A DNA stretch of 64,000 nucleotides from NCBI GenBank assembly GCA_022772305.1, contig JALFAQ010000054.1, forward strand, positions 43,432 to 107,431. Direction: 5' to 3'. Each line of letters begins with the position of its first letter. The first letter of the stretch is position 1. Source of the stretch: Corynebacterium glucuronolyticum. GTDB taxonomy: Bacteria; Actinomycetota; Actinomycetes; Mycobacteriales; Mycobacteriaceae. Shown piece by piece: positions 3,621 to 55,139 of the stretch. Both the position numbers and the translations under genes were made by a program. The notes under the pieces are model-generated. The model ran no database searches. It was not told the origin of the DNA and saw nothing but the letters and a program-made list of their open reading frames with translations.

Positions 3621-3960
3621 GCGGCCCAGCAGGTTCTGATTTCCGCCCAGCGCATTCCGCTTGGGCCACTTTGTGTACGGTTATCATCCCGTTTGCGGCC
3701 CGTCCCTGTTTGAATCTCGTGTGGCTTGTACCCGATGGGCTGCGTTGTGGTTTGTGTGCACGCAACGTGGCCCAGCTGTCGGTGTAGTCCATGTGGCTTC
3801 CGTCCCTTGGGCCGCGTTGCGTACGACCCTTATCCCGTTTGCGGCCCGTCCTTGTTTGAATCTCATGTGGCTTGTACCCGATGGGCCGCGTTGTGGTTCT
3901 TCCGCACCCAATGCGGCCCAGCCCCGCCGGAAGCTCAAGGGCCTTCAACTGGCTGGGCCG
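3621..3960. repeat. Phased GCGGCCC/GGGCCRC repeat array A
   Basis: No convincing gene lies between the rplL terminator and 4014. The region holds ten heptamer sites in alternating orientation: GCGGCCC-type at 3621, 3695, 3767, 3841 and 3913, and GGGCCRC-type at 3663, 3737, 3809, 3883 and 3955. Every reverse-to-forward step is 42 bp. Forward-to-reverse steps are 32, 30, 32 and 30 bp. A 63-bp stretch at 3689-3751 recurs at 3835-3897 with three differences, so part of the array was duplicated. Some sites are degenerate (GTGGCCC, GGGCTGC). Open frames across the array are GC-rich shadows. Confidence 0.85.
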
Positions 3961-4013
3961 TGAAAGAGACGCAGGTTCATGGATTCAACCTTTCTCGATG
4001 TACAGTAGGTGCC

Positions 4014-4931
4014 ATGCTTCCACGTTCTCGCGTTATATCCGCTCTGCTTATCGGTTTGGGTTTGGCTCTGCTGGTGTGGGGCCTTGTTACGCCTAGGTTC
4101 ACACAGGTGGGGGAGAACGTCCCCGTGGCGCACGGCGAGCTGACGTATACGCTGCGCGATGAGAACGCGATGAGTTTGGCGCCGGCGGAGATGGCGACGA
4201 AGATCGAGCCGGTGGAAGAGCAGCTGCATGTCGTGTACACCTCGCCGATCACGAATGAGGAGGCGACGGTCCGCGTTGGTCTGTCTGCGCGGCGGACGGA
4301 GCGGGCGACGGATCTGGAAGGCCTGCTCAAAGCGGAGGTCTATAGCTACAGGTTCGACCGCATGACGGGGGAGTCCATGACACCGGCAACAGTGTCCGAG
4401 CAGCTTGCGAGCCCTGTGGCCACCGTCGATGTGGATGGGCTGTGGTTCGCTTTCCCGCCGAATGCTGACGCAGACGAGTATCCGCTTTTCGACGCCACCC
4501 TCCGGGCCTCCCGACCTGCAGTAAAGGAGTCGACGGAAGAGGTTGACGGCCGTGAGGTTGTTACCTACAAGCAGGAATTTGCGCCGGAAGCGGTGGGGGA
4601 GACTGAGGATTCCTTGCCAGTGTTGTACCATGGCGCCAAGCGCGAAATAGTCGTCGACAAGGCCACCGGAATCGTCGTCGACATGACAGCCAAGATTGAG
4701 GATTACTACCTCACGGACGGCGAGCGCCAAGATGTCCTTCTCTTTGAGGGCGGGCTCGACCCGGAAGAATCGGCAGAGTTGCGTGCTATCGCCAGTGATG
4801 TGGCGGATCCATCGGCATGGCGGACGGCGAACTGGGTGGCAGCAGGTCTCGGAGGAGTACTTGCTTTGCTGGGTGTGCTGGGAGTTTTCGGAGTATTTGA
4901 CAAACGTCGAAAAGAGCACTTTACAAATTAG
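4014..4931 (+). CDS. DUF3068 (porin PorA-family) membrane protein
   Basis: The 305-residue protein has an N-terminal membrane segment (about residues 5-25, ALLIGLGLALLVWG). A large extracytoplasmic domain and a second membrane segment near residues 270-295 (AAGLGGVLALLGVLGVFG) follow, then a short basic tail. This two-anchor layout, and the D-Y-Y-L-T-D-G-E-R stretch late in the domain, match the actinobacterial DUF3068 family, whose role is not established. A DUF3068 gene before rpoB is found in corynebacteria. The ATG at 4014 was chosen because upstream in-frame codons lie in the repeat array. No strong ribosome-binding site is visible, so a leaderless message is possible. Confidence 0.72.
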   Translation: MLPRSRVISALLIGLGLALLVWGLVTPRFTQVGENVPVAHGELTYTLRDENAMSLAPAEMATKIEPVEEQLHVVYTSPITNEEATVRVGLSARRTERATDLEGLLKAEVYSYRFDRMTGESMTPATVSEQLASPVATVDVDGLWFAFPPNADADEYPLFDATLRASRPAVKESTEEVDGREVVTYKQEFAPEAVGETEDSLPVLYHGAKREIVVDKATGIVVDMTAKIEDYYLTDGERQDVLLFEGGLDPEESAELRAIASDVADPSAWRTANWVAAGLGGVLALLGVLGVFGVFDKRRKEHFTN

Positions 4932-5146
4932 TCGGCATGGGCTATGGTGATTTGTTGCGCTAGATTCGGTGGCCGATGTTTTGAAGGCCTTGATCAGAGG
5001 ATGGCGAAAGCCGGAATTTGACAAGGTCATTCAGTGCTATCTGGGCACCGAAACCTATAGCAGACCGAAAGCTTTACAAAACCAAGCGGTCAGGTGCTCA
5101 AATAGTGGGGTGCTTCTGACCGCGCGAGGTGCTGGAAGGATGCATC

Positions 5147-8100
5147 TTGGCAGTCTCCCGCCAGACCAATATCAACGTTAAGAACCCTGGAGCTCCTAAG
5201 CGATACTCGTTCGCGAAGATCAAGGAGCCCATTGGGCTACCTGGATTACTAGACCTACAGCTGAATTCCTTTGCTTGGCTCGTTGGCACGCCTGAGTGGC
5301 GTGAGCAGCAGAAGGCTGAGAAGGGCGAGGATTACAAGGTAACGAGTGGCCTTGAAGATATCCTCGAGGAGCTTTCTCCTATTCAGGACTTCTCTGGCAA
5401 CATGAGCCTGTCCCTCTCGGAGCCGTACTTCGAGCAGGTAAAGGCAAGTGTTGATGAGTGCAAAGAGAAGGACATCAACTACTCTGCGCCGCTGTACGTG
5501 ACGGCCGAGTTTGAGAACAAGGACACCGGCGAAATTAAGTCGCAGACGGTGTTCATCGGCGATTTCCCGATGATGACCCCGAAGGGCACCTTTATTGTCA
5601 ACGGCACCGAGCGTGTTGTTGTTTCTCAGCTTGTTCGTTCCCCGGGCGTGTACTTCGATGAGACTCTGGATAAGTCCACGGAGCGCCCGCTGCACGCTGT
5701 GAAGGTTATCCCTTCGCGCGGTGCATGGTTGGAAATCGACGTCGATAAGAAGGACACCGTTGGTGTTCGTATCGACCGCAAGCGTCGCCAGCCGGTGACT
5801 CTCCTCCTCAAGGCCCTGGGATGGACCGAGGAGCAGATCCGTGAGCGCTTCGGTTTCTCCGAGATTATGATGTCCACGCTGGAAAACGACGGCGCAGCCT
5901 CCGAGGATGAGGCTCTGCTCGAGATTTACCGCAAGCAGCGCCCGGGTGAGCAGCCCACGCGTGACCTTGCGCAGGCTCTGCTGGAGAACAGCTTCTTTAA
6001 GCCCAAGCGTTATGACCTGGCCAAAGTGGGCCGTTACAAGGTCAACCGCAAGCTGGGACTCGGTGGCGACGACGACGGCGTGAAGACGCTGACCGAGGAA
6101 GATATCGCTACCACCATTGAGTACCTCGTGCGCCTGCACGCCGGTGAGCGGACGATGACGTCCCCGGACGGCGTGGAGATTCCGCTCGAGACGGATGATA
6201 TTGACCACTTCGGTAACCGTCGCCTGCGTACCGTAGGCGAGCTGATCCAGAACCAGGTGCGCGTTGGTCTGGCGCGCATGGAGCGTGTGGTGCGCGAGCG
6301 CATGACCACGCAGGATGCAGAGTCGATCACGCCGACGAGCCTGATCAACGTGCGTCCCGTGAGTGCAGCTATCCGCGAATTCTTCGGAACAAGCCAGCTC
6401 TCCCAGTTCATGGACCAGAACAACTCTCTGTCCGGCCTGACGCACAAGCGTCGCCTGTCGGCTCTTGGCCCTGGCGGCCTGTCGCGTGAGCGCGCTGGCA
6501 TTGAGGTTCGTGACGTGCACCCGTCCCACTACGGTCGCATGTGCCCCATTGAGACCCCTGAGGGGCCGAACATTGGCCTCATCGGTTCGCTGGCTTCCTA
6601 CGCCCGCGTTAACCCGTTCGGCTTCATCGAGACGCCGTACCAGAAGGTGGAAAACGGCAAGATCATCGATCAAGTCGATTACCTCACTGCTGATGAGGAA
6701 GACCGTTACGTCATCGGCCAGGCTGATACCGAGCACGATGAGAACGGCGTTATTACCCAGCAGCGCAATGAGGTTCGTCTGAAGGACGGCGCCATTGAGG
6801 TTGTTGGCCCGGAGTCCATCGAGTACATCGATGTGTCCCCGCGCCAGATCGTGTCCGTTGCTACGGCCATGATTCCGTTCCTCGAGCACGACGATGCTAA
6901 CCGTGCCCTCATGGGTGCGAACATGCAGCGCCAGGCTGTGCCGCTGATCCGTTCCCAGTCGCCGTACGTTGGCACGGGCATGGAGGCCCCGGCTGCATAC
7001 GATGCTGGCGACCTGGTCATCAACGAGCACGCCGGTGTGGTTGAGAACGTGTGCGCTGACTTCATCACCGTGATGAGCGATGAGGGCAAGCGTGACACCT
7101 ACATGCTGCGCAAGTTCGAGCGCACGAACCAGAACACGTGCTACAACCAGAAGCCGCTGGTAGACATCGGAGACCGTGTGGAAAAGGGCCAGGTTATGGC
7201 CGACGGCCCGGGTACTCACGATGGCGAGATGTCCCTTGGTGTGAACCTCCTCGTGGCGTTTATGCCATGGGAAGGCCACAACTACGAGGACGCCATCATC
7301 CTGAACCAGCGTGTGGTGGAGGAGGACATCCTCACCTCGATCCACATCGAGGAGCATGAGATTGATGCCCGTGACACCAAGCTTGGTGCCGAAGAAATCA
7401 CCCGCGAGATCCCGAACGTGTCTGAGGACGTGCTCAAGGACCTCGACGAGCGAGGCATCGTCCGCATTGGTGCTGACGTCCGCGACGGCGACATTCTCGT
7501 CGGTAAGGTCACCCCGAAGGGCGAGACCGAGCTGACCCCTGAGGAGCGCCTGCTCCGCGCCATCTTCGGTGAGAAGGCTCGCGAGGTTCGCGATACCTCC
7601 CTGAAGGTTCCGCACGGTGAGACCGGCAAGGTAATCGGCGTTTCCCGCTTCTCCCGTGACGAGGGCGACGAGCTTCCTCCGGGAGTCAACGAGATGATCC
7701 GCATCCACGTTGCTCAGAAGCGCAAGATTCAGGACGGCGATAAGCTCGCTGGCCGCCACGGCAACAAGGGTGTTGTGGGCAAGATCCTCCCGCAGGAGGA
7801 TATGCCGTTCATGGAGGATGGCACCCCGATCGACATCATCCTGAACACGCACGGCGTTCCGCGTCGTATGAACATCGGTCAGGTGCTCGAGGTTCACCTC
7901 GGCTGGCTGGCGAAGGCTGGTTGGGCCATCGAAGGCGATCCTGACTGGGCCAAGCGCATCCCCGAGGAGCTGCGCAACGTCCCGGCTGATTCGCTGGTGG
8001 CAACGCCGGTGTTCGACGGTGCGACCAACGAGGAGATCGAGGGTCTGCTCGGCTCCACGTTGCCCGACCGCGATGGCAACCGGTTGGTTGATAAGTTCGG

Positions 8101-8614
8101 TAAGGCAACGCTTTTCGACGGTCGGTCCGGCGAGCCCTTCAAGTACCCGGTCTGTGTGGGTGAGAAGTACATGCTCAAGCTGCACCACCTCGTGGACGAG
8201 AAGATCCACGCCCGCTCGACTGGTCCGTACTCCATGATTACCCAGCAGCCGCTGGGTGGTAAGGCTCAGTTCGGTGGCCAGCGCTTCGGTGAGATGGAGG
8301 TGTGGGCCATGCAGGCATACGGCGCGGCTTACACCCTGCAGGAACTCCTGACCATCAAGTCCGACGATGTTAACGGCCGTGTTCGGGTGTACGAAGCGAT
8401 CGTGAAGGGTGACAACATCCCCGATCCTGGTATCCCGGAATCCTTCAAGGTGCTGCTGAAGGAGCTGCAGTCCCTGTGCCTCAACGTGGAGGTTCTGTCC
8501 GCTGACGGAACGCCTGTTGAGATCAGCGGTGCAGATGACGACGAGTTCGAATCGGCTAGTGCGTCCCTGGGCATAAACCTGTCCCGTGACGAGCGCGCAG
8601 ACGATATCGCATAG
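5147..8614 (+). CDS. rpoB: RNA polymerase beta subunit
   Basis: This is the beta subunit of RNA polymerase, about 1155 residues. The rifampicin-binding segment around residues 414-446 keeps the sensitive-type residues: [11 protein letters not shown], then [11 protein letters not shown]. Other landmarks are [40 protein letters not shown] and the C-terminal [19 protein letters not shown] favour the TTG at 5147. It has GGAAGGA 7 bases upstream (5133-5139), and TTGGCAG-TCCCGCCAG matches the mycobacterial TTG start. A GTG at 5129 would add six residues, as in some corynebacterial annotations, but has no ribosome-binding site. rpoC follows after 97 bp. Confidence 0.97.
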
Positions 8615-8618
8615 CAGG

Positions 8619-8639
8619 TAGGCGGGTAGAACCCGCCTG
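8619..8639 (+). other. Hairpin between rpoB and rpoC
   Basis: A perfect 8-bp stem (AGGCGGGT at 8620-8627 with ACCCGCCT at 8631-8638) closes a three-base loop. There is no T-run, so it is not a terminator. It could stabilise rpoB mRNA or be a processing site. Confidence 0.5.
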
Positions 8640-8711
8640 CATTCGAACCGAAAATTACTCTTAAAAAGACGAAAAGCCTCGTGTGAAAGACACGAGTGAA
8701 AGGTTTTAACT

Positions 8712-11700
8712 GTGCTCGACGTCAACTACTTTGACGAACTCCGCATCGGCCTTGCCTCCGCTGACGACATCCGTCGTTGGTCCAAGGGCGAGGTGAAGAA
8801 GCCGGAGACCATTAACTACCGCACCCTGAAGCCGGAGAAGGACGGCTTGTTCTGCGAGCGTATCTTCGGACCTACCCGCGACTGGGAGTGCCAGTGCGGT
8901 AAGTACAAGCGCGTACGTTACAAGGGCATCATCTGTGAGCGCTGTGGCGTTGAGGTGACCAAGTCCAAGGTGCGCCGTGAGCGTATGGGCCACATTGAGC
9001 TGGCCGCGCCGGTCACGCACATCTGGTACTTCAAGGGTGTCCCGTCCCGCCTGGGCTACCTTCTGGACCTTGCTCCGAAGGACCTGGAGCGCGTTATTTA
9101 CTTCGCCGCCAACATCATCACCACGGTGGATGAAGAGGCTCGCCACGACGACCTCACGACCCTCGAGGCCGACATGCTTCTGGAGAAGAAGGATGTGGAG
9201 GCTGACGCTGAGGAGGAAATCCAGGAGCGTTCCCAGAAGCTCGAGGAGGACCTCGCTGAGCTGGAGGCCAACGGTGCCAAGGCTGACGCCCGTAAGAAGG
9301 TGCAGTCTGCTGCTAACCGTGAGATGACCCACATCCGCCAGGCCGCTGAGCGCGAGATTGAGCGTCTCGACGAGATCTGGAACACCTTTGTCAAGCTCGC
9401 CCCGAAGCAGATGATCATCGACGAGACCATCTACGAGGAGCTCGTTGACCGCTATGAGGATTACTTCACCGGTGGCATGGGTGCTGAGGCCATCCAGACG
9501 CTGGTCCGCAACTTTGATCTTGATGCCGAGGCAGAAAACCTCCGCACCATCATCAAGGAGGGCAAGGGTCAGAAGAAGATGCGCGCCCTCAAGCGCCTCA
9601 AGGTTGTCGCTGCGTTCCAGCGTTCCGGCAACGACCCGGCATCCATGATCCTTGATTGCATCCCGGTCATCCCGCCGGAGCTGCGCCCGATGGTTCAGCT
9701 CGACGGTGGCCGCTTTGCTACCTCGGACCTGAACGACCTGTACCGTCGCGTGATTAACCGCAACAACCGCCTCAAGCGCATGATCGACCTCGGTGCCCCC
9801 GAGATCATCGTCAATAACGAGAAGCGCATGCTGCAGGAATCCGTCGATGCCCTGTTCGACAACGGTCGTCACGGCCGTGCCGTTACGGGTCCGGGTAACC
9901 GTGCACTGAAGTCCCTGAGTGACCTGCTCAAGGGCAAGCAGGGCCGTTTCCGTCAGAACCTGCTGGGTAAGCGTGTCGACTACTCCGGCCGTTCCGTGAT
10001 TATCGTCGGCCCGCAGCTGAAGCTGCACGAATGCGGTCTGCCGAAGCTCATGGCCTTGGAGTTGTTCAAGCCGTTCGTGATGAAGCGCCTCGTGGAAAAC
10101 GAGTACGCACAGAACATCAAGAGCGCAAAGCGCATGGTGGAACGTCAGCGCCCCGAGGTGTGGGACGTGCTGGAAGAGGCTATTTCCGAGCACCCGGTGA
10201 TGCTGAACCGTGCTCCTACGCTGCACCGCCTGGGTATTCAGGCCTTCGAGCCAAAGCTCGTTGAGGGTAAGGCTATTCAGCTGCACCCGCTGGCCTGTGA
10301 GGCCTTCAACGCCGACTTTGACGGTGACCAGATGGCTGTTCACCTGCCGCTGTCCGCTGAGGCACAGGCTGAGGCCCGCATCCTCATGCTGGCTTCCAAC
10401 AACATTTTGTCCCCGGCATCCGGCAAGCCGCTGGCAATGCCGCGTCTGGACATGGTGACCGGCCTCTACTTCCTGACGATGGATAAGCGTGAGGACGAGA
10501 TCGGTGGCCAGGGTCGTTACAAGCCGGCCACGACGGATCACCCGGCAGAGGGCGAGTACTCTTCCGTGGCCGAGGCCATCATGGCCTACGACCGTGAGCA
10601 GATTGGTCTGCAGGCGCCCATCCGCGTCCGCATTTCCCACCTGCGCCCGCCGGCCGATATCGAGGCCGAGCAGTTCCCCGATGGCTGGCAGCGTGGTGAC
10701 ACCTGGACAGCTATGACCACCCTGGGTCGCATCTACTTCAACGAGCTGCTGCCGTGGAACTACCCGTACCTTGAGGGCGTCATGGTCCGCAAGGGCGGCG
10801 GCGAGGGCAAGATCCTCCTTGGTGACGTGATTAACGATCTTGCTGCCAAGTACCCGATGATCACCATCGCGCAGACGGTGGACAAGATGAAGGACTGTGG
10901 CTTCTACTGGGCCACCCGCTCCGGCGTGACCATCACCATGAGTGACGTGCTTGTTCTCCCGAACAAGAAGGAGATCCTCGAGCGTTACGAGAAGGCCGCT
11001 GCCGAGGTGGAGAAGAAGTACTGGGTCAAGGGTGCCCTTACCCAGCGCGAGCGCTACGACCGCCTCGTGGAGCTGTGGAAGGACGCCACCGACGTCGTCG
11101 GTAAGGCTGTGGAGAACCTGTACCCGGATGACAACCCGATCCCGATGATCGTGAAGTCGGGTGCTGCCGGTAACATGCGCCAGCTGTGGACGCTGGCCGG
11201 CATGAAGGGCATGGTTGTGAACTCCCGCGGTGAGTACATCACTCGCCCGATTAAGACGTCGTTCCGTGAAGGCCTGAACGTGTTGGAGTACTTCAACAAC
11301 TCCCACGGTTCCCGTAAAGGCCTGGCCGATACGGCTCTGCGTACCGCTGACTCCGGTTACCTCACCCGTCGTCTCGTGGATGTGGCGCAGGACGTCATCG
11401 TCCGCGAGGAGGATTGTGGTACCCACCAGGGTGTCCGCGTTGCTGTCTGCCACGCGCAGCGCGATTCTGAGGGCAACGTTGTGGGCTACGAGCGCGACGG
11501 TCTCATCGAGACCTCCGTTTCCGGCCGCGTTCTCGCGCAGGATGCTACCGATGCCGACGGTAACGTTGTGCTCGAGGCCGGTTCTGATCTCACCGATACG
11601 CACATCGACACGCTGGTGGAGAAGGGCGTTGAGCAGATCAAGGTCCGCTCCGTTCTAACCTGCCAGACCCCGTCCGGTGTGTGCGCGAAGTGCTACGGCA

Positions 11701-13250: not shown

Positions 13251-13263
13251 GCAATGAGGACCG

Positions 13264-21157: not shown

Positions 21158-21572
21158 GCGGCCCGTCCCTTCCTATTCGCCGTCCCCAGTCTCCCCGTCG
21201 GGCCACTTTCTATTCCATCAATCCGCAATGTGGCCCATCCACGGTAAGCCTCTCAGTGTTCCGCGCCCGTTGGGCCGCGTTCGGGATGCCGGCGTTCCTT
21301 TCGCGGCCCAGCCTTGCCATTTAGCTTGCACTCGCAATCCGTCGGGCCACTTTCTATTCCATCATTCTGGCTCATCCGCTGAGATACTCCGGCTACGTGT
21401 TCAACCATGGGCCGCTTTGCGTATTCCTGGGGTAGGGGAGAGTCCTTTTGCGGCCCAAGGATGTCAGAGACAATGCGCATCAGTTCTGACTGGGCCGCAA
21501 AAGGACAACGCACCGAACGTTTTGTGGCCCGACCCCTTCCAAACCAAAACCACGGAGATCTGCCTGGGCCGC
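21158..21572. repeat. Phased GCGGCCC/GGGCCRC repeat array B
   Basis: The gap between convergent genes ending at 21136 and 21642 holds an array. Reverse sites lie at 21158, 21230, 21303, 21367 (degenerate, CTGGCTC), 21450 and 21524. Forward sites lie at 21200, 21272, 21344, 21409, 21492 and 21566. Reverse-to-forward steps are 42, 42, 41, 42, 42 and 42 bp. Forward-to-reverse steps are 30, 31, 23, 41 and 32 bp. A 26-bp identical stretch starting two bases before 21200 recurs at the same place relative to 21344, 144 bp later. No credible gene is present. Confidence 0.85.
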
Positions 21573-21641: not shown

Positions 21642-22208
21642 TTAGTCGGCGTTGCGCTGCACGGGCTCCATGTGGAGGCGGAAGCGGGAGTCGACATCGA
21701 CGTCGCGAATTGCTTCGCGGAGGTCGAGGTTGGCCTGTTCGATGCGTTCGCGAATCTGGACTGAGTTCACGCGCGGGTCGGCGGTGATAGTGAAGTCCAT
21801 GATGGGGCGATCGCGGAACTCCTTGACCGAGGCACCGGCATTTTCCACAAAGGGAATGTCCTCGAAGGATTTGGCAATGGCATCAGCGACGCGGCCGAGG
21901 GCCAGGGTGATGTTGCCGTCTTTGTTGGATGCAGATGACGGGACGCGGTTGACGGTCTTGCGGGTGAAGTTGCTCAGGATCAGCCAGAGGCCGAGGATGA
22001 TCGCAACAATACCGATGAGACCGAGGAGCCAGGGGTAGGCTGGGGCGTCGGAAAGTGTGCGCCAAGCCTCTTGGTCTGCAAATTCAGTGGCGTACTGGGC
22101 GTACGGGTTGTTGAAGTGCAAAGCGATGAGGAGGGCACCGACTGCGGCGAACAGCAGGAAACCGAGAAAGGCGATGATGCGGTTAAATGCGGCTAGGCCT
22201 CTGTTCAT
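21642..22208 (-). CDS. Alkaline shock response membrane anchor protein AmaP-like
   Basis: The 188-residue protein has two membrane segments (about residues 10-30 and 57-80). The C-terminal domain of about 100 residues contains GNITLALGRVADAIAK, V-K-E-F-R-D-R-P and DVDSRFRLHME. This fits the AmaP family, which anchors Asp23-type proteins to the membrane in Staphylococcus. It is the last gene of the minus-strand Asp23 cluster. Its start is next to the stop of the DUF6286 gene (they share one base), so the two are translationally coupled. Confidence 0.7.
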   Translation of the reverse strand: MNRGLAAFNRIIAFLGFLLFAAVGALLIALHFNNPYAQYATEFADQEAWRTLSDAPAYPWLLGLIGIVAIILGLWLILSNFTRKTVNRVPSSASNKDGNITLALGRVADAIAKSFEDIPFVENAGASVKEFRDRPIMDFTITADPRVNSVQIRERIEQANLDLREAIRDVDVDSRFRLHMEPVQRNAD

Positions 22209-30660: not shown

Positions 30661-30971
30661 GTAGCCCATCCGGTTCCTTTTGGGAGGCATTCTTCATCTC
30701 GTCTGCGGCCCTTGTACTTCCAGCTTCTCTTCCTTTTACATCGGTTGGGCCGCTTTCCGTTGCAGGCGCGTCTGGATTGCGGCCCTGGCGGGTTTCGATC
30801 CGCGTCCTCTTGTCTGCCGTTGGGCTGCGCTTGTTTCTTCCATCCGGTTTGCGGCCCATCTGGTTCTTGCTTGTCGACGTTGGATTCCCCTCGGGCCGCA
30901 TCGCGTACTTCTTCATCTCGTCTGCGACCCATCCCACTGAGTCCCTCAGGTGTGTGCAGGGTTTGGGCCAC
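30661..30971. repeat. Phased GCGGCCC/GGGCCRC repeat array C
   Basis: No credible gene lies between the S10 terminator and 31107. Reverse sites lie at 30661 (GTAGCCC, isolated), 30705, 30779, 30851 and 30924 (GCGACCC). Forward sites lie at 30747, 30822 (GGGCTGC), 30893 and 30965. Reverse-to-forward steps are 42, 43, 42 and 41 bp. Forward-to-reverse steps are 32, 29 and 31 bp. A 13-base segment before the site at 30705 (CTTCATCTCGTCT) recurs before that at 30924. Confidence 0.82.
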
Positions 30972-42142: not shown

Positions 42143-42401
42143 GTGGCCCAGTGACCGCCGAACCCCGTGTGCATGGGAGCCACCGGGCCGCAGTTGATTC
42201 CGGATGCGACAGCCTGCATCCAGTGTGCGGCCCAATCACTACGGGAGCACGAGAGTTCGGGTGCGCACGGGCCACCTTTTGAACTTCGCGCGTCCTTCCT
42301 TACTCGCTTTGCGGCCCGAGGTTTCTCAAACCCCGACAGCTCGGATACGGATGGGCCGTAGTGGATACCGGAGCAGAGGGCTGGCATCCGCTTTGTGTCC
42401 C
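42143..42401. repeat. Phased GCGGCCC/GGGCCRC repeat array D
   Basis: The gap between convergent genes (42034-42627) holds the most regular array. Reverse sites lie at 42143 (GTGGCCC), 42227, 42311 and 42395 (GTGTCCC). Forward sites lie at 42185, 42269 and 42353 (GGGCCGT). All six steps, in both orientations, are exactly 42 bp. An isolated GTGGCCC lies at 42502. The sequences between the sites are unrelated. Frames across the region are not credible genes; 42402-42627 shows nothing else. Confidence 0.85.
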
Positions 42402-42627
42402 ATCGATCCCCGAACCCTGATACCTTGGCAGCAGATAAGTCATCTTCCAACGGTTTCCTCCGCATCTCACCAGCCGAGCCTCCGCAATGCTAAAAACCAT
42501 AGTGGCCCAGCGCACCCCGCTCAGAAACAAGGCAGCGCGGAATAGCTCATCCCGATACAGCGGCATAGTAAAAGCCACCCAGTTTCCCAGGTGGCCATGC
42601 AGGTCAGAGACTAAATCCTCTGGGTGG

Positions 42628-44346
42628 TTACTTCTTCCAACCGATGTTCTGTGGCTTCACAATGGCGAAACCGAAGGCGCCCTGGTTGGCAAGGTTTTCC
42701 TTCTGCGCGATGATGTCGGGGCCGGCGTACATCGGGACGATGCCGTAGCGTTCGATGAACTCGGGCTCGAGCTCGTTGGAGCGCTTGGTCTGCTCTTCGC
42801 GGGTGGGCAGTTCCTGCAGTTCGGCGATCTTGGCGTCGCCCTCAGCGTCGCCGGTGGAGGAGACGTTGAGGTCGGAGTCGGAGCCGAAGGTCTGGTCGAA
42901 GTAGGCGACACCGAACGGGTCAGAGGAGGTGAATCCCATGGGGAACAGGTCGAAGTCGCGCGCGGTGTAGATGTTGGAGAATTCGCTGGAGGGGCGCTCC
43001 TCGATCTTGATGTCCACGCCGATTTCCTTCATCATCTTCTGGAAGGCGGTTGCGGTGTTGCGGGTGATTTCCTCGGCACCGGTGAGGACGTAGCGTAGGG
43101 AGAGCTTTTCGCCGTCCTTTTCCCGGATTCCGTCGCTGCCCTTTTCCCAGCCTGCTTCGTCGAGGATTGCGTTGGCCTCGTCGGGGTCGTAGCTGACTAC
43201 CTTGGAGAAGTTGTCCTCGTAGGCGGGCTGGAAGGAGTGGATGATGAAGGATCCGGGGGGAGTCTCGTTGTAGGGGAGGCCGTTGAACCAGATCTTGGAG
43301 AGGGTCTCACGATCCATGCCCTTGACGATGGCCTCGCGGACCTCCTTGTCAGCAAGCTGCGGAGTCTTGGCGTTCAGGGTGAGCAGCGAGATCTTCGGCT
43401 TGTGGCTGATCTTCTTCTCCACGCCGCTCATGCCGTCGATGGCTGCCCAGCGGTCGCGGGAGCTGACGCTGGTCGAGTCGATTTCGCCGTTCTTGAAGGC
43501 GTTGATGGAGGCGTCTGCTTCCATCTGGCGGTAGATACGCTGGTCAAGCTTGCCCTTGTCGCCCCACCAGTTGTCGTTGCGCTTGAACACAGCCTCGCCC
43601 TTGTTGAAGTCGACGTAGTCGACGGTGTACGGGCCTGCGCCCCATTCGGGGTGCACCTTGTTCACGTAGTCGTTGTAGTTGGCGGGGTCTTCGAGCGCCG
43701 GGTGGGCGGGCTCATTGAAGAGGGACTGCCACCAGGGGTAGGTGCCGCGGAAGGTGACTACCGCCTGCTTGTCGTTGTCGCCTGCGGTGACGGAGGTGAT
43801 GCGGTCGTAGCCGTCGGTGGCGTTCGGCTTGTAGTCGTCGCTTTCGCCGTTGTTGATCTTCCAGGTGGCGTGGAAGGTCTTCCAATCGATGGGGGTGCCG
43901 TCGTTGTACGTTGCTTCGTCGCGGATGGTGTAGGTGACGACGGTGTTCCCGTCAACAATGTCTTCCTTCACGTCGGTGAGGTAGTCATCGTTGAGGGAGA
44001 AGTTGCCTTCGCCATCGAAGAGTATGAACTGGGGGTTGTACCAGCGCCAGAGATTGAGGGTGTACAGCGGGGCATCCGCGTGGTGGCGGTTTTGCTGTGT
44101 GGAGATCTCGGAGATGGCGGTGACGAGCTTGCCGCCGTCCTTGACCTGGTCGTAGGGCGTTTCGTTGTAGTCGGCCGCTGGGATCTCCATCATGTCCGAG
44201 TCTGCGCCTGTTTGGGCGCTATTCGACGACTTGTTGGAGCCGTTGGCACTCGAGTCACCCTGGGGGTTGCTTGCGCAGCCTGTGAAGACGAGGGCGGATG
44301 CGGCGACGATAGCCGCTAATTTGGTGGGTAAGGGGCGTACTTTCAT
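42628..44346 (-). CDS. Peptide ABC transporter substrate-binding lipoprotein (1)
   Basis: The 572-residue lipoprotein has a signal with lipobox V-F-T-G-C (cysteine near residue 24) and a family-5 solute-binding fold (DppA/OppA type). Motifs include P-Y-T-V-D-Y-V-D-F-N-K-G and V-R-E-A-I-V-K-G-M-D-R. It ends F-G-F-A-I-V-K-P-Q-N-I-G-W-K-K. It is a close paralogue of the protein encoded at 44589-46295 (similar along the full length). It lies at the end of the minus-strand transporter block. The upstream hairpin at 44535-44560 suggests a partly separate transcript. The start ATG at 44346 was chosen by the signal sequence; a longer frame extends upstream. Confidence 0.85.
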   Translation of the reverse strand: MKVRPLPTKLAAIVAASALVFTGCASNPQGDSSANGSNKSSNSAQTGADSDMMEIPAADYNETPYDQVKDGGKLVTAISEISTQQNRHHADAPLYTLNLWRWYNPQFILFDGEGNFSLNDDYLTDVKEDIVDGNTVVTYTIRDEATYNDGTPIDWKTFHATWKINNGESDDYKPNATDGYDRITSVTAGDNDKQAVVTFRGTYPWWQSLFNEPAHPALEDPANYNDYVNKVHPEWGAGPYTVDYVDFNKGEAVFKRNDNWWGDKGKLDQRIYRQMEADASINAFKNGEIDSTSVSSRDRWAAIDGMSGVEKKISHKPKISLLTLNAKTPQLADKEVREAIVKGMDRETLSKIWFNGLPYNETPPGSFIIHSFQPAYEDNFSKVVSYDPDEANAILDEAGWEKGSDGIREKDGEKLSLRYVLTGAEEITRNTATAFQKMMKEIGVDIKIEERPSSEFSNIYTARDFDLFPMGFTSSDPFGVAYFDQTFGSDSDLNVSSTGDAEGDAKIAELQELPTREEQTKRSNELEPEFIERYGIVPMYAGPDIIAQKENLANQGAFGFAIVKPQNIGWKK

Positions 44347-49494: not shown

Positions 49495-50478
49495 TTAGCT
49501 CACCCTCACTCGTGGGTCAAGGAAGACGACGAACAGGTCGGACAGCACGGCGCCGATGGCGGTCATGAGGGCACCGAAGGCGGCCACGCCCACCGCGCCG
49601 TGGATGTCGTTCTTCTGGATGGTCTCAAGGAAGTAGCTGCCCATGCCGTTCCAACCGAAGATGGTCTCCGTCATGATGGCACCGGTGAAGATGCCGGGGA
49701 TGGAGAAGGCGATGGAGGTTGCCACGGGAATGATGGACGTGCGCAGCGCGTGGCGTCGAATAGCCTGCGCCTTGGTCAGGCCCTTGGCGCGGGCGGTGCG
49801 GACGTAGTCGGCATCGATGTTGTCCAGCAGCATGTTGCGTTGCATCAGGTGGTAGCTCGCGTACGAGATGATGAGCAAACAGATGGTGGGCAGGATGAGG
49901 TGCTGGAAGCCGTCGACAAGCTGGTTGAAGAAGCCTTCGACACCAATCGAGGATGCGCCGGTGACGTAGAACACGGGCTGGCCGGCCATGCGGTTGATGG
50001 TGATGGCGATCCAGACGACGAGGACGGAGGCCACAACTACGTGGGTGTTTAGCGTGATGAGGGAGACAACCATCCAGCCGCGGTCGGCGGGCTTATCCTT
50101 GCGGGATGCGGTGAATACGCCGAGGGCGATACCGATCACCACGGAGAGGAATGTGGCGAGCAGGAGCAGCCGGGCGGAAACCCAGATGCGGTAGGAGATT
50201 TGCTCGTTGATGGAGTCACCCAGGGGGCTGGAACCCCAGTTCCAGTGGAAGAGGATTTGCGAAAGCCAGTTCCACCAGCGTTCCAGGATGGGGACCTTGT
50301 CGTTGAGGTTGAGTGGTTCAAGGATCGCGTCAATGCGTTCTTCTGGCACAGGCGGGCGACGGCCCGCGTAATTAGAGCGTGGATTGAGGAAGCTTGATGC
50401 CAAGAAATACGTAATGTTCACGGCGACGAAGATCATGGCGAACCAGCTGGCCGCCTTCTTCAGCATGTATTTCAGCAT
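49495..50478 (-). CDS. Peptide ABC transporter permease (DppB type)
   Basis: The 327-residue permease is the first gene of the minus-strand transporter operon. It has about six membrane segments and the permease loop motif (A-R-A-K-G-L-T-K-A-Q-A-I-R-R-H). The start is ATG at 50478. The region upstream (50479-50737) is A+T-rich and should hold the promoter, but I cannot place a clear -35/-10 pair. Confidence 0.88.
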   Translation of the reverse strand: MLKYMLKKAASWFAMIFVAVNITYFLASSFLNPRSNYAGRRPPVPEERIDAILEPLNLNDKVPILERWWNWLSQILFHWNWGSSPLGDSINEQISYRIWVSARLLLLATFLSVVIGIALGVFTASRKDKPADRGWMVVSLITLNTHVVVASVLVVWIAITINRMAGQPVFYVTGASSIGVEGFFNQLVDGFQHLILPTICLLIISYASYHLMQRNMLLDNIDADYVRTARAKGLTKAQAIRRHALRTSIIPVATSIAFSIPGIFTGAIMTETIFGWNGMGSYFLETIQKNDIHGAVGVAAFGALMTAIGAVLSDLFVVFLDPRVRVS

Positions 50479-50737
50479 GTTTCTGCCTTGCTAGTCTCGG
50501 TTCAGTCGCCTGTCTTGTAGGCGACCTCTCGTGCGTCACTATCTGGTCAAGATCAATAGGCCCACTCTTGTGGGTGTTGTCACAATCGTAAAACACAGTG
50601 ATTGTTGACGGGGGTTGTTCAACACGTGAATACAATAACCAGTGGGGAATAGTATACATTCAGGCGTATTTTAACTGGTGTTTGCCTGGCTGTTTCTCAA
50701 AACTTGCACAGAAAAGGGGTTTGTATCGGCGGAATAA

Positions 50738-50775
50738 TTACCACCCGTGGGGGTGGTAAGTCTTAAATATAAGAC
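50738..50775 (-). terminator. Two adjacent perfect hairpins behind fdhD
   Basis: TTACCACCC pairs with GGGTGGTAA (50738-50759, loop GTGG), and GTCTTA pairs with TAAGAC (50760-50775, loop AATA). On the minus strand they follow fdhD by about 165 bases, and TTATTCC follows, so they may terminate the fdh operon. The rest of 50479-50940 shows no gene. Confidence 0.5.
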
Positions 50776-50940
50776 GCAGCTTTTGTCTGCTTCGTGAAGT
50801 TGATTGACCTAGAACAGGTGTGGTCTGACCTTTGTTTTGGGGTATGCCATGAGGCTTTGGTGGCCTCCGCTGCCCCTGAAAATGCATAAACGCGCGGGCG
50901 TTCCCTTGGCTTCCGCGCGTCTATACACGTGCGAAAAACG

Positions 50941-51792
50941 CTAGGAGAGCTCCCCGGAATAGAGATTAAACCTATCCGGTCGCACGAAACCGGCAAGGAA
51001 CATGCCGTGCGTGCGGGCGAGCTCCACGGCAAGCGAGGTGGGTGCACCAACGGCGACGAGGCCGGGGATGCCCGCCATGAGTGCCTTTTGCACCAACTCG
51101 AAGGAGGCGCGCGAGGACATGACCAGGATGGAATCCCGGGCGGGAATGAGTGGCTCGGGCTCCTCCAAAAGGAGCGAGCCGACGAGTTTGTCCAGGGCGT
51201 TGTGCCGCCCCACGTCTTCCCGCACAGCGTGCAGTTCCAAGCCAGCATCGGTCGCAGTGAAAAGCGCAGCGGCGTGCGAACCGCCGGTTTTCCTAAACGC
51301 CGGCTGCTTTTTCCGCAGCTGTGCAGGTAATGTTGCGACTTCTGCAGGTATGAACGGGCGCGGTTCGAATGGGTGAGGTAAGCGCTTGGAAAGCTGCTCA
51401 ATGGAAGCCGTACCGCAGACCCCGCACGCCGACGTGGTCAGTGTGTTCCGAGAGGCCGTATCGAGTGCGACCGTTGTTGCCGCGGCGGCGTTGCGCAGAT
51501 CGATATCCAGCACGTTGTACGTGTTCACGCCGTCAGCGGTGGAACCCGCGCAATATCGGGCGGAGAACACGTCATCCTTGCTGGTGATGAGGCCCTCGGA
51601 GTAGAGGAATCCATGGGCCCACTCGACGTCATGGCCGGGCGTGCGCATCGTCGTGGTGAGCGCCGTACCCCCGACACGCAGTTCCAGCGGTTCCTCGACG
51701 ATGACGGTATCCGCACGAGCGTCCGTCGAATAGCCCCCGTCACCAGTTAGTTCAACTTGGGTGACGGGGAAACCAGTGGTGATCCGACCCAT
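50941..51792 (-). CDS. fdhD: Formate dehydrogenase accessory sulfurtransferase FdhD
   Basis: FdhD transfers sulfur to the molybdenum cofactor of formate dehydrogenases. The 283-residue protein has the catalytic C-G-V-C-G loop (C123 and C126), then G-G-S-H-A-A-A-L-F and V-R-E-D-V-G-R-H-N-A-L-D-K. These are complete FdhD signatures. It starts 6 bp after the fdhF-like gene and is the last gene of the fdh operon. Confidence 0.95.
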   Translation of the reverse strand: MGRITTGFPVTQVELTGDGGYSTDARADTVIVEEPLELRVGGTALTTTMRTPGHDVEWAHGFLYSEGLITSKDDVFSARYCAGSTADGVNTYNVLDIDLRNAAAATTVALDTASRNTLTTSACGVCGTASIEQLSKRLPHPFEPRPFIPAEVATLPAQLRKKQPAFRKTGGSHAAALFTATDAGLELHAVREDVGRHNALDKLVGSLLLEEPEPLIPARDSILVMSSRASFELVQKALMAGIPGLVAVGAPTSLAVELARTHGMFLAGFVRPDRFNLYSGELS

Positions 51793-51798
51793 AACTCC

Positions 51799-54108
51799 CT
51801 AATCAGCGTCCTGGTCAAAATCGTGAGCGGAAACTCCCAGGGGCTCGAGGCGGACGGGGGTGGACTTCGACACCGGAGTGTGCGACTTCTTCACAAAGCT
51901 CTCCAGTGGGATGAGCACGTTGGCCTCTGGCATGTAGGCTGCGACGCAGCCCATCGCCGTGTCGTACTCGACGACGCGGAAATTCGGTGCGCGACGCTCA
52001 CCATCGGGGGCGATGGAGACGAGGTCCACCAGGTCGCCACCCTTGAGGCCGAGCTTGTAGCAGTCCTGCGGGTTCACAAACACAACGCGGCGACCGTTCT
52101 TCACACCACGGTAACGGTCGTTGAGGCCGTAAATCGTGGAGTTGTACTGGTCGTGGGAGCGGATCGTGTTGAGGAAGAAGTACCCCTCGGGGATCTCTAC
52201 TACCTCGAGCTTGTTCACCGTCAGGTGGGCCTTGCCATCCGGGGTGGTGAAGTTACGTTCACGCGGCCCGTTGGGGAGCAGGAAGCCACCGGGGTGCTTG
52301 ATGCGCTCGTTGTAATCGTCGAAGCCAGGAATCGTGGCCTCAATGTGGTTGCGCACCACTGAGTAGTCATCGATCATCGGGCGCCAGTAGCCGTCCTCCG
52401 GGAACAGGCGATCACCGATCTCGCCGAGGATTTCCACCTCAGAGCGCAGGTCAAGGTCCTCGTTGTGGCGGGACTTGCCGCCGGAAGCGTGGACTGCACC
52501 CTGGGAATCCTCCACTGTCACGACCTGGCGGCCGGACAGCTGCTCGTCCAGGTCCGTGCGGGCCTTGGTCGGCAGAATGAGGGACACCTTGCCCGGGTGG
52601 GCGTGTGTGTTGTTCAGCTTGGTGGATACGGACACGGTCATGTCCATGGAGTCCATCGCGTGCTCACACGCGCCGGTGTCGCTGGTGACGCGTACGAAGT
52701 TGCCGCCGAGCTGCCAGAAGAAGCTGGCCTTGCCTTCCTTCATGCCACGCAGCGCATCGACCGTGGACCAGCCGGGCTCGCGGGGGCAGGTGAAGCCGAA
52801 TTCCTTCTCCAGTGCCTTGTAGAAGGTCTCGGGCATTTCCTCAGCAATACCAACGGTGCGGTCCCCCTGCACGTTGGAGTGGCCACGCAGCGGAGCGGTG
52901 CCCGCGCCGGGCTTGCCGATGTTGCCGGTGAGCAGTAGGAAGTTGGCGATCTCCTGGATTGTTTCGATGGAGTTCTTGTGCTGCGTAAGGCCCAGCGTCC
53001 AGGAGACGATGACGGAGCCAGCCTGCTCCACCATGTCGGCCACCTCCTGCACGTCGTGCATGGTCAGACCAGTCGCCCGCAGGTAGTCCTTATCGTCGAG
53101 GCTCATGATGTTTGCAATGGCCTCGTCTGCGCCAACGCAGTACTTATCTAGGAACTCGTGGTCAATCGCATCGCGACGGATGAGCTCGCGGTTGAGCGCG
53201 AGGAAGAACGCGTGGTCGCCAGCGGACTTAATCTGCAGAAAGCGGTCCGAAATATCGGTGCGACCGCCGAGGATATGCTCGGGGTTCTGCGGCTCCTGGA
53301 AGCTGTTGGTGTACGTCTCATTCAGCGGGTTGATCGTGACGATCTTGCCACCGCGGTCCTTAATTTCCTTCAGCACCGTCAGCATGCGCGGGTGGTTCGT
53401 ACCCGGGTTCTGGCCGACGGAAATGACAAGGTCCGTGACCTTGAAATCGGCGTAGGTGACGCTTCCCTTGCCCAAACCGACCGTGGGGGCGAGAGCCTTA
53501 CCTGTGGAATCGTGGCACATGTTTGCGCAGTCCGGCAGGTTGTTGGTGCCGTAGCGACGCGCCAGCAGCTGGAACATGTACGCCGGCTCGTTCGCGGTAC
53601 GGCCGGACGTGTAGAAGATAGCCTTGTTCGGGTCATCCAGCGTCTTCAGGTAATCGACGATCGTGTTGAAAGCCTTGTCCCAGCTCACCGGGTGGTAGTA
53701 ATCGTCGGTGCCGTCGTACATCATCGGGGTGGTGATGCGGCCTTGGCGTCCGAGCCAGTAATCGGTCTTCTGGCGCAGGTCAGACACGGAGTAGCGCTCG
53801 AAGAACTCGGGGTCGACGCGGCGGCGGGTGGTCTCCTCCGCGACGGCCTTTGCGCCGTTCTCACAGAACTCGACGATGTTGCGGTCGCCCATCGGCGGCT
53901 CCGGCCAAGCGCAGCCGGGGCAGTCGATGCCACCGGGCTGGTTCATCGTCAGCAGTGGTAGGAGGGCATTCTCCGGCACGGCGAACTTCATAGCGGTGAG
54001 CACACCGGGGATGCCTGCGGCGAGACGGTGTGGGCGTTCAATCTTAGGGTTATCGAATCGATTTTGCTTACGCGGCTGGCGGCGCTTATTGTCCACGGTC
54101 TTAGTCAT
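51799..54108 (-). CDS. fdhF: Molybdopterin oxidoreductase, FdhF/YdeP family
   Basis: This 769-residue protein is a molybdopterin enzyme alpha subunit of the FdhF/YdeP type. C198-H199 in D-C-A-N-M-C-H-D-S-T-G aligns with the selenocysteine-His pair of E. coli FdhF, so cysteine is the likely Mo ligand. Only C-P-G-C (C63, C66) and C82 remain near the N-terminus, with an odd spacing for the usual [4Fe-4S] motif. Y-G-L-N-D-R-Y-R-G-V and N-P-Q-D-C mark the C-terminal cofactor domain. Formate as substrate is inferred from the family and the adjacent fdhD. A -10-like TACAAT lies at 54115-54120 (minus), so the message may be leaderless. Confidence 0.85.
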   Translation of the reverse strand: MTKTVDNKRRQPRKQNRFDNPKIERPHRLAAGIPGVLTAMKFAVPENALLPLLTMNQPGGIDCPGCAWPEPPMGDRNIVEFCENGAKAVAEETTRRRVDPEFFERYSVSDLRQKTDYWLGRQGRITTPMMYDGTDDYYHPVSWDKAFNTIVDYLKTLDDPNKAIFYTSGRTANEPAYMFQLLARRYGTNNLPDCANMCHDSTGKALAPTVGLGKGSVTYADFKVTDLVISVGQNPGTNHPRMLTVLKEIKDRGGKIVTINPLNETYTNSFQEPQNPEHILGGRTDISDRFLQIKSAGDHAFFLALNRELIRRDAIDHEFLDKYCVGADEAIANIMSLDDKDYLRATGLTMHDVQEVADMVEQAGSVIVSWTLGLTQHKNSIETIQEIANFLLLTGNIGKPGAGTAPLRGHSNVQGDRTVGIAEEMPETFYKALEKEFGFTCPREPGWSTVDALRGMKEGKASFFWQLGGNFVRVTSDTGACEHAMDSMDMTVSVSTKLNNTHAHPGKVSLILPTKARTDLDEQLSGRQVVTVEDSQGAVHASGGKSRHNEDLDLRSEVEILGEIGDRLFPEDGYWRPMIDDYSVVRNHIEATIPGFDDYNERIKHPGGFLLPNGPRERNFTTPDGKAHLTVNKLEVVEIPEGYFFLNTIRSHDQYNSTIYGLNDRYRGVKNGRRVVFVNPQDCYKLGLKGGDLVDLVSIAPDGERRAPNFRVVEYDTAMGCVAAYMPEANVLIPLESFVKKSHTPVSKSTPVRLEPLGVSAHDFDQDAD

Positions 54109-54114
54109 GCCACC

Positions 54115-54144
54115 ATTGTATAGGTATAGGCAAACGTTGCGGAA
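54115..54144 (-). promoter_or_regulatory. Possible promoter of the fdhF gene
   Basis: On the minus strand TACAAT occupies 54120-54115, and TTCCGC lies about 18 bases upstream (54144-54139). Transcription would start near the ATG at 54108, giving a leaderless message. Ribosome-binding sequence is lacking. A second -10-like TATAAT lies near 54148. Confidence 0.4.
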
Positions 54145-54158
54145 TTATAACTAAAATA

Positions 54159-54192
54159 GGTGGGTGACCAGTACGTTCTGGCCACCCACCCA
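54159..54192 (-). terminator. Terminator between the DUF6457 gene and fdhF
   Basis: GGTGGGTG-CCAG pairs with CTGG-CACCCACC with one mismatch around a six-base loop. On the minus strand it is followed by CTATTTTAG. It lies 10 bases behind the DUF6457 stop, so only part of the transcription would reach fdhF. Confidence 0.6.
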
Positions 54193-54201
54193 GGGCTAGT
54201 T

Positions 54202-54480
54202 TCACTTCTCGTCGGAGGGGTACTTTTCCTCGATGACCTTGACCAATGTCTTGATCGATTCGAGTGCGCGGTCGCTGATCACCTTCGCGTCGGCGGCCGC
54301 CCCCACCTGGCCTGCGGACACACCCACGAGGAACGCCGTCAGTGGTGCCGCCGGCCGCGACGGCCCGTGCGCCACGTGCTTCGTCAGGTCGAGCAGGTCG
54401 TTGATCCTTGGCTGCAGCACCTCGTAGTCAACGTCCAGCTGCCTCGCCGCTTCCCGCAGCCATTCCTCAAAGTCACCCAT
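54202..54480 (-). CDS. DUF6457 protein beside fdhF
   Basis: The 92-residue soluble protein is helical: E-E-W-L-R-E-A-A-R-Q-L, I-N-D-L-L-D-L-T-K-H-V-A-H-G-P-S-R-P-A-A-P, and F-L-V-G-V-S-A-G-Q. This matches DUF6457, which lies beside fdhD/fdhF-like or mobA-like genes in actinobacteria. A role in molybdenum cofactor delivery or enzyme maturation is inferred from this position. It is the first gene of the minus-strand fdh block, and the divergent rpsH unit follows after 1.1 kb. Confidence 0.7.
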   Translation of the reverse strand: MGDFEEWLREAARQLDVDYEVLQPRINDLLDLTKHVAHGPSRPAAPLTAFLVGVSAGQVGAAADAKVISDRALESIKTLVKVIEEKYPSDEK

Positions 54481-54611
54481 GGTCTATCCTTCCTTTTCGC
54501 TTTTCGACGTGCAGGTCCTCCCACACCGTCACCATATATATAACAGTGTAAACCGAATTACGCTCCTCCGTCGCCCACCAGCTCCAGCCCTCATCCACCC
54601 ACATCTGCTTC

Positions 54612-55139
54612 GCGGCCAGGCAGCTCCCATCGCCCGGGTGACGGGAGCGGCATGGGCCACATTGCGTGCGCGCATCATTTCTACTGCAGCTTCTGCGGCC
54701 CGTTTCGTTCACCTGACTCGTGCTTCTCGTCCTCCTGGGCCGCCCTTCCGTACGTAGCCCTGGTCGAAGAAAACTTTTGCGGCCCAGCTCCCTCCTGCCA
54801 CTAGCCTCTCAGCCATCCTTGGGCCGCATTCGATGCCTGCCCGTCTGCTTTGCAGCCCAACCGACCTCATCGCTAGAGTGCCGGGGAGGCGACGGGCCAC
54901 ATTGCGTACATTAAACTCGCCCCAAGAATCATTTGCGGCCCGTTCCTTCCAAAGCACTCGTGCTTTTCCAGCGTCTGGGCCACATTTGATTACGACGGGG
55001 GCGGTTTGCAGCCCATCCGTAGACATCGCCCGGGGCCGGAGAGGGGGATGGGCCGCATTCCGTACAAGAGACTGTCCAAAGAAATAGTTTGCGACTCAAC
55101 TCCGTGAGATAACCCGACCTTCCGCCACTGCTGGGCCGC
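54612..55139. repeat. Phased GCGGCCC/GGGCCRC repeat array E
   Basis: The divergent gap 54481-55577 holds the longest array. Reverse sites lie at 54612 (GCGGCCA), 54695, 54779, 54852 (GCAGCCC), 54935, 55008 and 55091 (GCGACTC). Forward sites lie at 54654, 54737, 54821, 54894, 54977, 55050 and 55133. All seven reverse-to-forward steps are exactly 42 bp. Forward-to-reverse steps are 41, 42, 31, 41, 31 and 41 bp. There is no credible gene. 55140-55577 is the rpsH leader region and shows nothing else firm. Confidence 0.86.

What the first reader, a model, noticed from the sequence alone, without database searches (positions are those of the whole stretch)
3621..55139. Five intergenic arrays of a helically phased alternating inverted heptamer
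In five gaps the sites GCGGCCC (reverse) and GGGCCRC (forward) alternate strictly. The start-to-start step from a reverse to the next forward site is 42 bp in 22 of 25 pairs that I counted by hand, with the others 41, 41 and 43. Steps from forward to reverse fall at 29-32 or 41-42 bp, with one of 23. 42 and 31.5 are four and three turns of B-DNA, so the sites face the same side of the helix. Spacer sequences mostly differ while spacer lengths are kept. Geometry rather than simple duplication therefore seems to be selected. The layout resembles BIMEs (alternating REP units with fixed linkers), but the heptamer is not one I recognise. It may serve as a multi-site platform for a dimeric DNA-binding protein, a gyrase or nucleoid-protein site, or an RNA hairpin array.
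Basis: partly seen in the sequence, partly recalled or inferred. Interest (0 to 1): 0.95.

Follow-up and report, generated by a model that had tools for sequence, protein, structure and literature searches.

The report
Phased site arrays marking chromosome domain
In two sister bacteria, dozens of short inverted DNA sites spaced by near-whole turns of the double helix fill gaps between genes along one stretch of about 190-230 thousand bases and almost nowhere else, and they are likely docking tracks for a still unknown protein that would mark or fold that part of the chromosome.

Summary
The window has five intergenic arrays of alternating GYGGCCC (R) and GGGCCRC (F) sites. Counting in-phase single-mismatch sites, the R->F step is 42 bp in 20 of 23 pairs; 14 exact pairs have step 42, against a mean of 0.005 in shuffles. 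The genome has 43 such 49-bp units. Of 241 other genus genomes, only sister species G116 (RpoB 99%) has many (31); 16 have one each. In G116's closed chromosome 50 of 52 units (<=1 mismatch) lie in one 187-kb stretch, 6.5% of the chromosome. Own contigs with units map there or just to its left. Sixteen array gaps are shared, yet most spacer sequence has turned over while heptamers, orientation and spacing are kept. Heptamers do not covary and no RNA fold is supported. Best reading: double-stranded DNA platforms for an unidentified dimeric protein, restricted to one chromosome domain. They resemble BIMEs in layout and matS in distribution, but fail the REP tag, hairpin and dispersal tests, and are not parS. 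Binder unknown; function inferred. A selfish satellite is the main rival.

The parts
3621..3961 (.). Array 1: 10 sites, R-F 42 (x5), F-R 32/30/32/30; after rplL (ends 3542) and a terminator-like hairpin at about 3563-3600; the next + frame (ends 4931) can start at about 4014
   Evidence: orthologous array in G116 at 462197-462537 (10 sites)
21158..21572 (.). Array 2: 11 sites; convergent gap (left gene ends 21136 +, right gene 21642-22208 -)
   Evidence: orthologous array in G116 at 479824-480379 (17 sites)
30705..30971 (.). Array 3: 8 sites, downstream of rpsQ (ends 30590) after a terminator-like hairpin
   Evidence: orthologous array in G116 at 489427-489665 (7 sites)
42143..42508 (.). Array 4: 7 in-phase sites, all steps 42, plus a lone R at 42502; convergent gap after rplE (ends 42033), next gene 42628-44193 -
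   Evidence: the orthologous 154-bp gap in G116 (498694-498849) has no array
54612..55139 (.). Array 5: 13 sites, F-R steps 31 and 41-42 mixed; upstream of rpsH (55584 +), the called gene on the left being on the - strand
   Evidence: orthologous array in G116 at 512054-512555 (13 sites)

Best explanation
The arrays are dyad sites (GYGGCCC-35 bp-GGGCCRC, dyads joined mostly by 24- or 35-bp linkers) confined to one 190-230-kb stretch of the chromosome in two sister species, and they likely act as double-stranded DNA platforms on which an unidentified dimeric protein would assemble along one face of the helix to mark or fold that domain. Shown: the geometry, the intergenic and gene-end placement, the domain restriction, the sharing of 16 gaps between two species, the turnover of most spacer sequence with heptamers kept, and the lack of pairing covariation in the heptamers. 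Inferred: that a protein binds; that it is dimeric (each half-site is one arm of a dyad, with a motif at the dyad centre, two turns from each heptamer, that looks weakly palindromic by eye); that neighbouring dimers sit on one helical face and cooperate; and that host selection on a domain-level task (condensation, segregation or insulation, comparable in logic to matS/MatP) keeps the arrays where they are.
For: Domain: in the closed G116 chromosome 50 of 52 units with <=1 mismatch lie at 330,668-518,119; the 2 outside (2,590,850 and 2,595,353) are fewer than the 6 of the reversed control. In stretches fetched from it, 55 step-42 pairs lie in 320-520 kb, 0 in 440 kb of flanks and 0 in 400 kb elsewhere; reversed controls gave 3, 0 and 6 in the three stretches scanned. 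The eight own contigs with exact units map to 320.7-524 kb of G116, except C14, which maps to 273.7-286.1 kb. Maintenance: 16 of 17 array gaps of G116 carry an array in the own genome, which has 5 more. Spacer-plus-linker identity between orthologous arrays averages 0.43 (201 unit pairs) against 0.41 for non-orthologous ones (3429) and 0.29 for shuffles, although 24 of 36 flanking blocks are 80-90% identical (range 69-96). Among 246 half-sites the last four bases GCCC are 99% invariant and mismatches gather in the first three positions (sites were admitted with at most one mismatch, so only the pattern, not the level, is informative). dsDNA: the variable C/T position has 93 like pairs against 97.8 expected over 140 pairs; U-G and C-A combinations are equally common (18 and 17 of 113). 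Phasing: peak at 10.4 bp. Placement: arrays in 10 of 30 convergent gaps, 5 of 125 tandem, 2 of 29 divergent (Fisher p 2.8e-5; my own gene calls).
Against: No binder was found; 37 domain proteins of G116 without a hit in the fetched stretches of two relatives were only read by eye, one TetR-like regulator being the only DNA-binding candidate I saw. The trait is in 2 of 242 genomes, so it is no core function of the genus. Six of 22 array gaps are occupied in one species only, so single arrays are dispensable. Two own arrays lie left of G116's leftmost, at the equivalents of about 322.8 and 285 kb, so the left border is not fixed. Turnover is not complete: some orthologous units are still alike (0.81 at C45 25682, up to 0.71 at C20), so part of the sharing is plain descent. 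Array sizes correlate only weakly between species (rho 0.45, p 0.10, n 14). Domain restriction could come from local spread; similarity falls faintly with distance (rho -0.04 and -0.05, p about 0.06 in each genome) and units of arrays less than 5 kb apart are slightly more alike. In the small F->R step-42 set (15 pairs) two non-heptamer positions pair more than chance (p 0.03 and 0.009 among 108 position tests).
Confidence: 0.45

Rival explanations
1. A non-autonomous, satellite-like selfish element: units amplify within gaps by slippage or conversion and spread locally, and the heptamers are kept because the amplifying enzyme needs them. The host has no use for them; gene-end placement reflects tolerance.
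For: Within-array amplification is visible: repeated near-identical units at G116 407382-407726 and an alternating two-unit pattern at 479896-480307, and identical spacers at own C3 11297 and 11443. Units of one array are more alike than units of different arrays (0.61 against 0.42 in G116; 0.46 against 0.40 in own). Presence/absence differences exist: 6 of 22 gaps, for example own C3 11173, where the two G116 genes overlap.
Against: No Y1 transposase in the own genome (other transposases were not searched). Array 1 has no similarity to phage or plasmid records. Sixteen shared gaps with most spacers turned over but heptamers kept is not what dead copies would show. A plain selfish element gives no reason for a domain with nothing on either side.
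Confidence: 0.3
2. Gene-end roadblocks or supercoil-handling sites in a heavily transcribed region (BIME-2-like gyrase or topology sites, or insulation of convergent transcription).
For: Arrays favour convergent gaps; 11 of the 14 G116 arrays with a + gene on their left start 15-84 bp after its stop. The domain includes rplL-rpoBC, str, S10 and spc operons (named by eye). BIMEs bind gyrase in E. coli (passage of PMC2267715).
Against: Many array neighbours are not ribosomal genes (galE-, hemC-, rmlA-like by eye). The alpha operon at 525-528 kb lies just beyond the border without arrays. Highly expressed genes elsewhere would need them too, and G116 shows no excess outside the domain.
Confidence: 0.15
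3. RNA hairpin arrays in 3' untranslated regions (terminators or RNA stability elements).
For: R..F and F..R are inverted repeats and could pair; arrays lie at gene ends. Two non-heptamer positions in 15 F->R step-42 pairs pair more than chance.
Against: No covariation at any heptamer position, and several flanking positions pair less than chance. Consensus fold no better than column-shuffled controls on either strand. Unit orientation shows no evident tie to gene direction by eye. No Rfam match at gathering score in the window. Three window arrays follow a separate terminator-like hairpin.
Confidence: 0.05
4. Replacement centromere: the chromosomal ParB of this clade has switched from parS to the arrays.
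For: The 16-bp parS with <=1 mismatch is absent from both array-bearing genomes but occurs 9 times in relative G098.
Against: G116 keeps the 14-bp parS core GTTTCACGTGAAAC at three places within 41 kb of oriC, with changes only in the outermost bases, and has an ordinary-looking parA-parB pair beside dnaA; the core was not searched in the own genome. One ParB_N protein in each of six genomes, no extra paralogue. The array domain is 0.33-0.52 Mb from oriC in G116.
Confidence: 0.03

Closest known systems
BIME / REP elements (bacterial interspersed mosaic elements)
   Same: Intergenic; alternating orientation with regular spacing; proposed roles in protein binding and chromosome organisation (passages of PMC2817692)
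   Different: Unit is a 7-bp half-site in a 49-bp dyad with a 35-bp spacer, not a 20-40-bp hairpin; no GTAG tag enrichment; no pairing covariation; no Y1 transposase; confined to one domain instead of scattered
matS sites of the Ter macrodomain (MatP)
   Same: Sequence-specific sites restricted to one chromosome domain (abstract starts in the listing; detail recalled)
   Different: Arrays of many phased sites, about one array per 11 kb, rather than single sites; domain on one arm at 0.33-0.52 Mb from oriC, not at the terminus; no MatP-like binder sought or found
parS clusters bound by ParB
   Same: Clustered sites in a limited stretch, on one side of oriC as in C. glutamicum (ten sites in 35 kb, passages of PMC7083940)
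   Different: Different sequence; far from oriC; parS cores and ParB are also present in G116
Plasmid iteron or partition-site arrays (for example heptad arrays of the omega repressor; recalled)
   Same: Short repeated sites for dimeric proteins, phased along the helix
   Different: Chromosomal, in about 20 separate gene gaps, 31/42-bp steps instead of contiguous heptads; array 1 has no match in the plasmid collection

Membership tests
BIME/REP | Regularly spaced repeats in alternating orientation, intergenic | tested here: met
   256 of 271 steps alternate; six clusters of 2-3 sites fall in called genes, none of four or more
BIME/REP | GTAG-type (or CGTC) tag at the foot of the palindrome | tested here: not met
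   GTAG within 20 bp outside or inside the heptamer in 8-13 of 309 half-sites per side and strand, CGTC in 11-22; my rough expectation at equal base use is about 20
BIME/REP | Each unit an imperfect hairpin | tested here: not met
   no heptamer covariation, no consensus fold above column-shuffled controls
BIME/REP | Scattered genome-wide | tested here: not met
   50 of 52 units in 187 kb of 2.87 Mb in G116
BIME/REP | Associated Y1 transposase (RAYT) in the genome | tested here: not met
   PF01797: 0 matches in the own genome, found in 5 of 14 control genomes; not every REP genome need have one (recalled)
matS/MatP-type domain sites | Sites restricted to one chromosome domain | tested here: met
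   own genome
matS/MatP-type domain sites | MatP or other known domain-organising binder | not tested
   no search for MatP was run; no binder identified
parS/ParB | 16-bp parS consensus near oriC, bound by ParB | tested here: not met
   no site with <=3 mismatches to parS at 300-540 kb of G116; parS cores lie near oriC instead; binding not testable
CRISPR | Direct repeats of about 21-40 bp with unique spacers | tested here: not met
   sites alternate in orientation and are 7 bp long; spacers share a weak consensus
Structured RNA | Covarying paired positions or Rfam match | tested here: not met

The most novel reading that the evidence does not exclude
A bacterial counterpart of centromere-type satellite DNA: fast-evolving arrays in which mainly the protein-contact heptamers and their helical spacing are selected, marking a single 0.2-Mb chromosome-arm domain for an as yet unknown DNA-binding protein that arose in one clade of the genus, beside a normal ParB-parS system.
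Probability: 0.35. Interest if true: 0.93.

Novelty: new variant of a known kind. Interest (0 to 1): 0.82.

Why it matters
Domain-specific DNA signals in bacteria are few (matS, parS and similar), and I know of no intergenic repeat array confined to one chromosome-arm stretch. If a protein binds here, these two species give a ready system to ask how a chromosome domain is defined, how a new site family spreads and is kept, and what selection on geometry looks like. It also warns that such repeats may break assemblies: the own genome's domain lies on eight contigs, several with arrays at or near contig ends.

Tried and rejected
Lost-parS idea: 0 parS (<=1 mismatch) in both array genomes against 9 in G098 looked like a centromere switch. 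Reading G116's oriC region showed three parS cores with two outer mismatches and a normal-looking parAB, and no second ParB. Rejected.

RNA hairpins and terminators: rejected on covariation and folding.

RAYT/REP origin: no Y1 transposase, no tag. Phage or plasmid source: array 1 alone was used as query, no match. Five single hits in viral contigs and 22 single hits in 22 records of the named genome collection look like chance; records very near the window's genome may be left out there.

A different family with the same geometry in the nearest relatives: none in 200-kb stretches of G098 and G095, where 94 and 90 of 182 G116 proteins have a hit. A second step-16 motif in the domain is repeat DNA of a long repetitive gene.

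Clade-specific domain proteins: 37 proteins read by eye only; no Pfam scan was run. Literature: the listings showed no description of this array; only open-licence papers are held.

Full report
What is there. The window (G000:C3:43432-107431, 58.6% GC, genome 2.61 Mb in 92 contigs) carries the rplJL-rpoBC, str, S10 and spc region, genes named by eye. Five gaps hold arrays of R (GYGGCCC) and F (GGGCCRC) sites at 3621-3961, 21158-21572, 30705-30971, 42143-42508 and 54612-55139.

Chance. Exact sites give 14 R->F pairs at step 42; 200 dinucleotide shuffles give 0.005 on average and 1 at most. Genome-wide the exact pattern GCGGCCC-N35-GGGCCRC occurs 36 times and its reverse 0 times. With free spacing (20-50) there are 52 against 9 in the reversed control; 44 of the 50 listed have the 35-bp spacer. 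F->R pairs: 41 against 11.

Geometry. Over both genomes that have the arrays, with single-mismatch sites accepted only if in phase (this favours the phase), R->F steps are 42 in 124 of 149 and 41-43 in 141 of 149. F->R steps are 29-33 in 91 and 41-43 in 15 of 116. Site positions within 39 clusters of four or more sites (310 sites; one cluster, own C3 31161, is probably chance) are most coherent at 10.4 bp (0.61), with F->R classes one turn apart. The half-site extends to about C-C/G-n-A-A-Y-GCGGCCC-R. Units oriented by likelihood, which inflates asymmetry, share a weak central motif CnCTCG at the dyad centre, 21 bp from each heptamer; spacers are diverged rather than unrelated.

Not an RNA. 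Across 140 R->F and 91 F->R step-31 pairs, the two half-sites do not covary at any heptamer position; the variable C/T position has 93 like pairs against 97.8 expected. In 15 F->R step-42 pairs two positions outside the heptamer pair more than chance (p 0.03, 0.009; 108 tests in all). U-G and C-A combinations are balanced (18 and 17 of 113), and RNAalifold energies do not beat column-shuffled controls on either strand. No Rfam match at gathering score in the window.

Where else. In 242 genomes of the genus (own included) only own (43) and G116 (31) have many units; 16 others have one each, in line with control counts. RpoB, found in 236 of the 242, places G116 at 99% identity and the next genome at 86%. 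G098 and G095, next in rank, have hits to 94 and 90 of 182 G116 proteins in the 200-kb stretches fetched, largely in order, and show no inverted-heptamer family there. Named genomes and viral contigs gave only single scattered hits; array 1 had no match in phages or plasmids.

One domain. G116 is a closed 2,866,769-bp chromosome starting at dnaA-dnaN. Its units with <=1 mismatch number 52, all listed; 50 lie at 330,668-518,119 and 2 near 2.59 Mb; the reversed control has 6. In fetched stretches 55 step-42 pairs lie in 320-520 kb, 0 in 440 kb of flanks, 0 in 400 kb elsewhere; reversed controls gave 3, 0 and 6. Of the eight own contigs with exact units, C66, C20, C45, C28, C89, C3 and C4 map to 320.7-524 kb and C14 to 273.7-286.1 kb. 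The own arrays therefore span the equivalent of about 285-518 kb, with two arrays left of G116's leftmost. Most alignment breaks fall at arrays.

Two species compared (gaps matched by eye from the alignment blocks). Of 17 array-bearing gaps in G116, 16 have an array in the own genome; the exception is 407382-407800, where own C89 has none. The own genome has five more (C66 2376, C89 2548, C3 11173, C3 85574, C14 451). At C3 11173 the G116 genes overlap, a clean presence/absence difference. Spacers and linkers of orthologous arrays are 0.43 identical, non-orthologous 0.41, shuffled 0.29, although 24 of 36 flanking blocks are 80-90% identical. A few orthologous units are still alike (0.81 and about 0.7). 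Over 310 sites 235 are exact and 75 have one mismatch, with 11 expected alternate sites missing; mismatches gather in the first three heptamer positions while GCCC is 99% invariant. Admission required at most one mismatch, so these levels are partly built in. Similarity between arrays falls only faintly with distance (rho -0.04 and -0.05, p about 0.06).

Placement. In G116's 322-518 kb, arrays sit in 10 of 30 convergent, 5 of 125 tandem and 2 of 29 divergent gaps (my own gene calls; Fisher p 2.8e-5). Eleven of 14 arrays with a + gene on their left start 15-84 bp after its stop. Neighbours include many non-ribosomal genes.

Mechanism. I take the arrays as dsDNA platforms for a dimeric protein that assembles along one helix face and marks or folds the domain. 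The binding, the dimer and the domain-level task are inferred. A selfish satellite comes next: within-array amplification is plain and six of 22 gaps differ between species. Host maintenance is favoured because positions persist while most of the sequence except the heptamers and spacing turns over. Gyrase or roadblock roles are possible; RNA and ParB-centromere readings were tested and fail.

Papers. PMC2817692, PMC2267715 and PMC7083940: passages. MatP papers: search listing with abstract starts only.

Noticed in passing
G116:C1:195254-207454 (L120-L121): A CRISPR-like array: 91 steps of exactly 61 bp between repeats containing ATCCCCGCAGGTGCGGGG.
   Followed up: partly
L027:1501-1549 and four more places in G052 (same order, another family): Five 49-bp palindromes GCGGCCC-35-GGGCCGC, most with longer stems, spread over the whole chromosome; same outer heptamers and spacing as here, probably unrelated.
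   Followed up: partly
G116:C1:399221-399672 (L103): Where own contig C89 has an array, G116 has a different tandem repeat, roughly 100 bp per unit by eye.
   Followed up: no
G116 parS, L187-L188: 2826001, 2841551, 2842703: parS cores in G116 differ from the consensus only in the outermost bases, and just three (<=2 mismatches) were found in 87 kb left and 40 kb right of oriC, against nine sites with <=1 mismatch in G098.
   Followed up: partly
L112:1799-2299 (G116, between rsmG and yidC): A tandem repeat in an oriC-proximal gap that reads as a repetitive open frame.
   Followed up: no
G116:C1:418675-423093 and own C14:5699-8200: Very long Asp-rich repeat proteins; in G116 their DNA repeats give a spurious step-16 inverted motif.
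   Followed up: no
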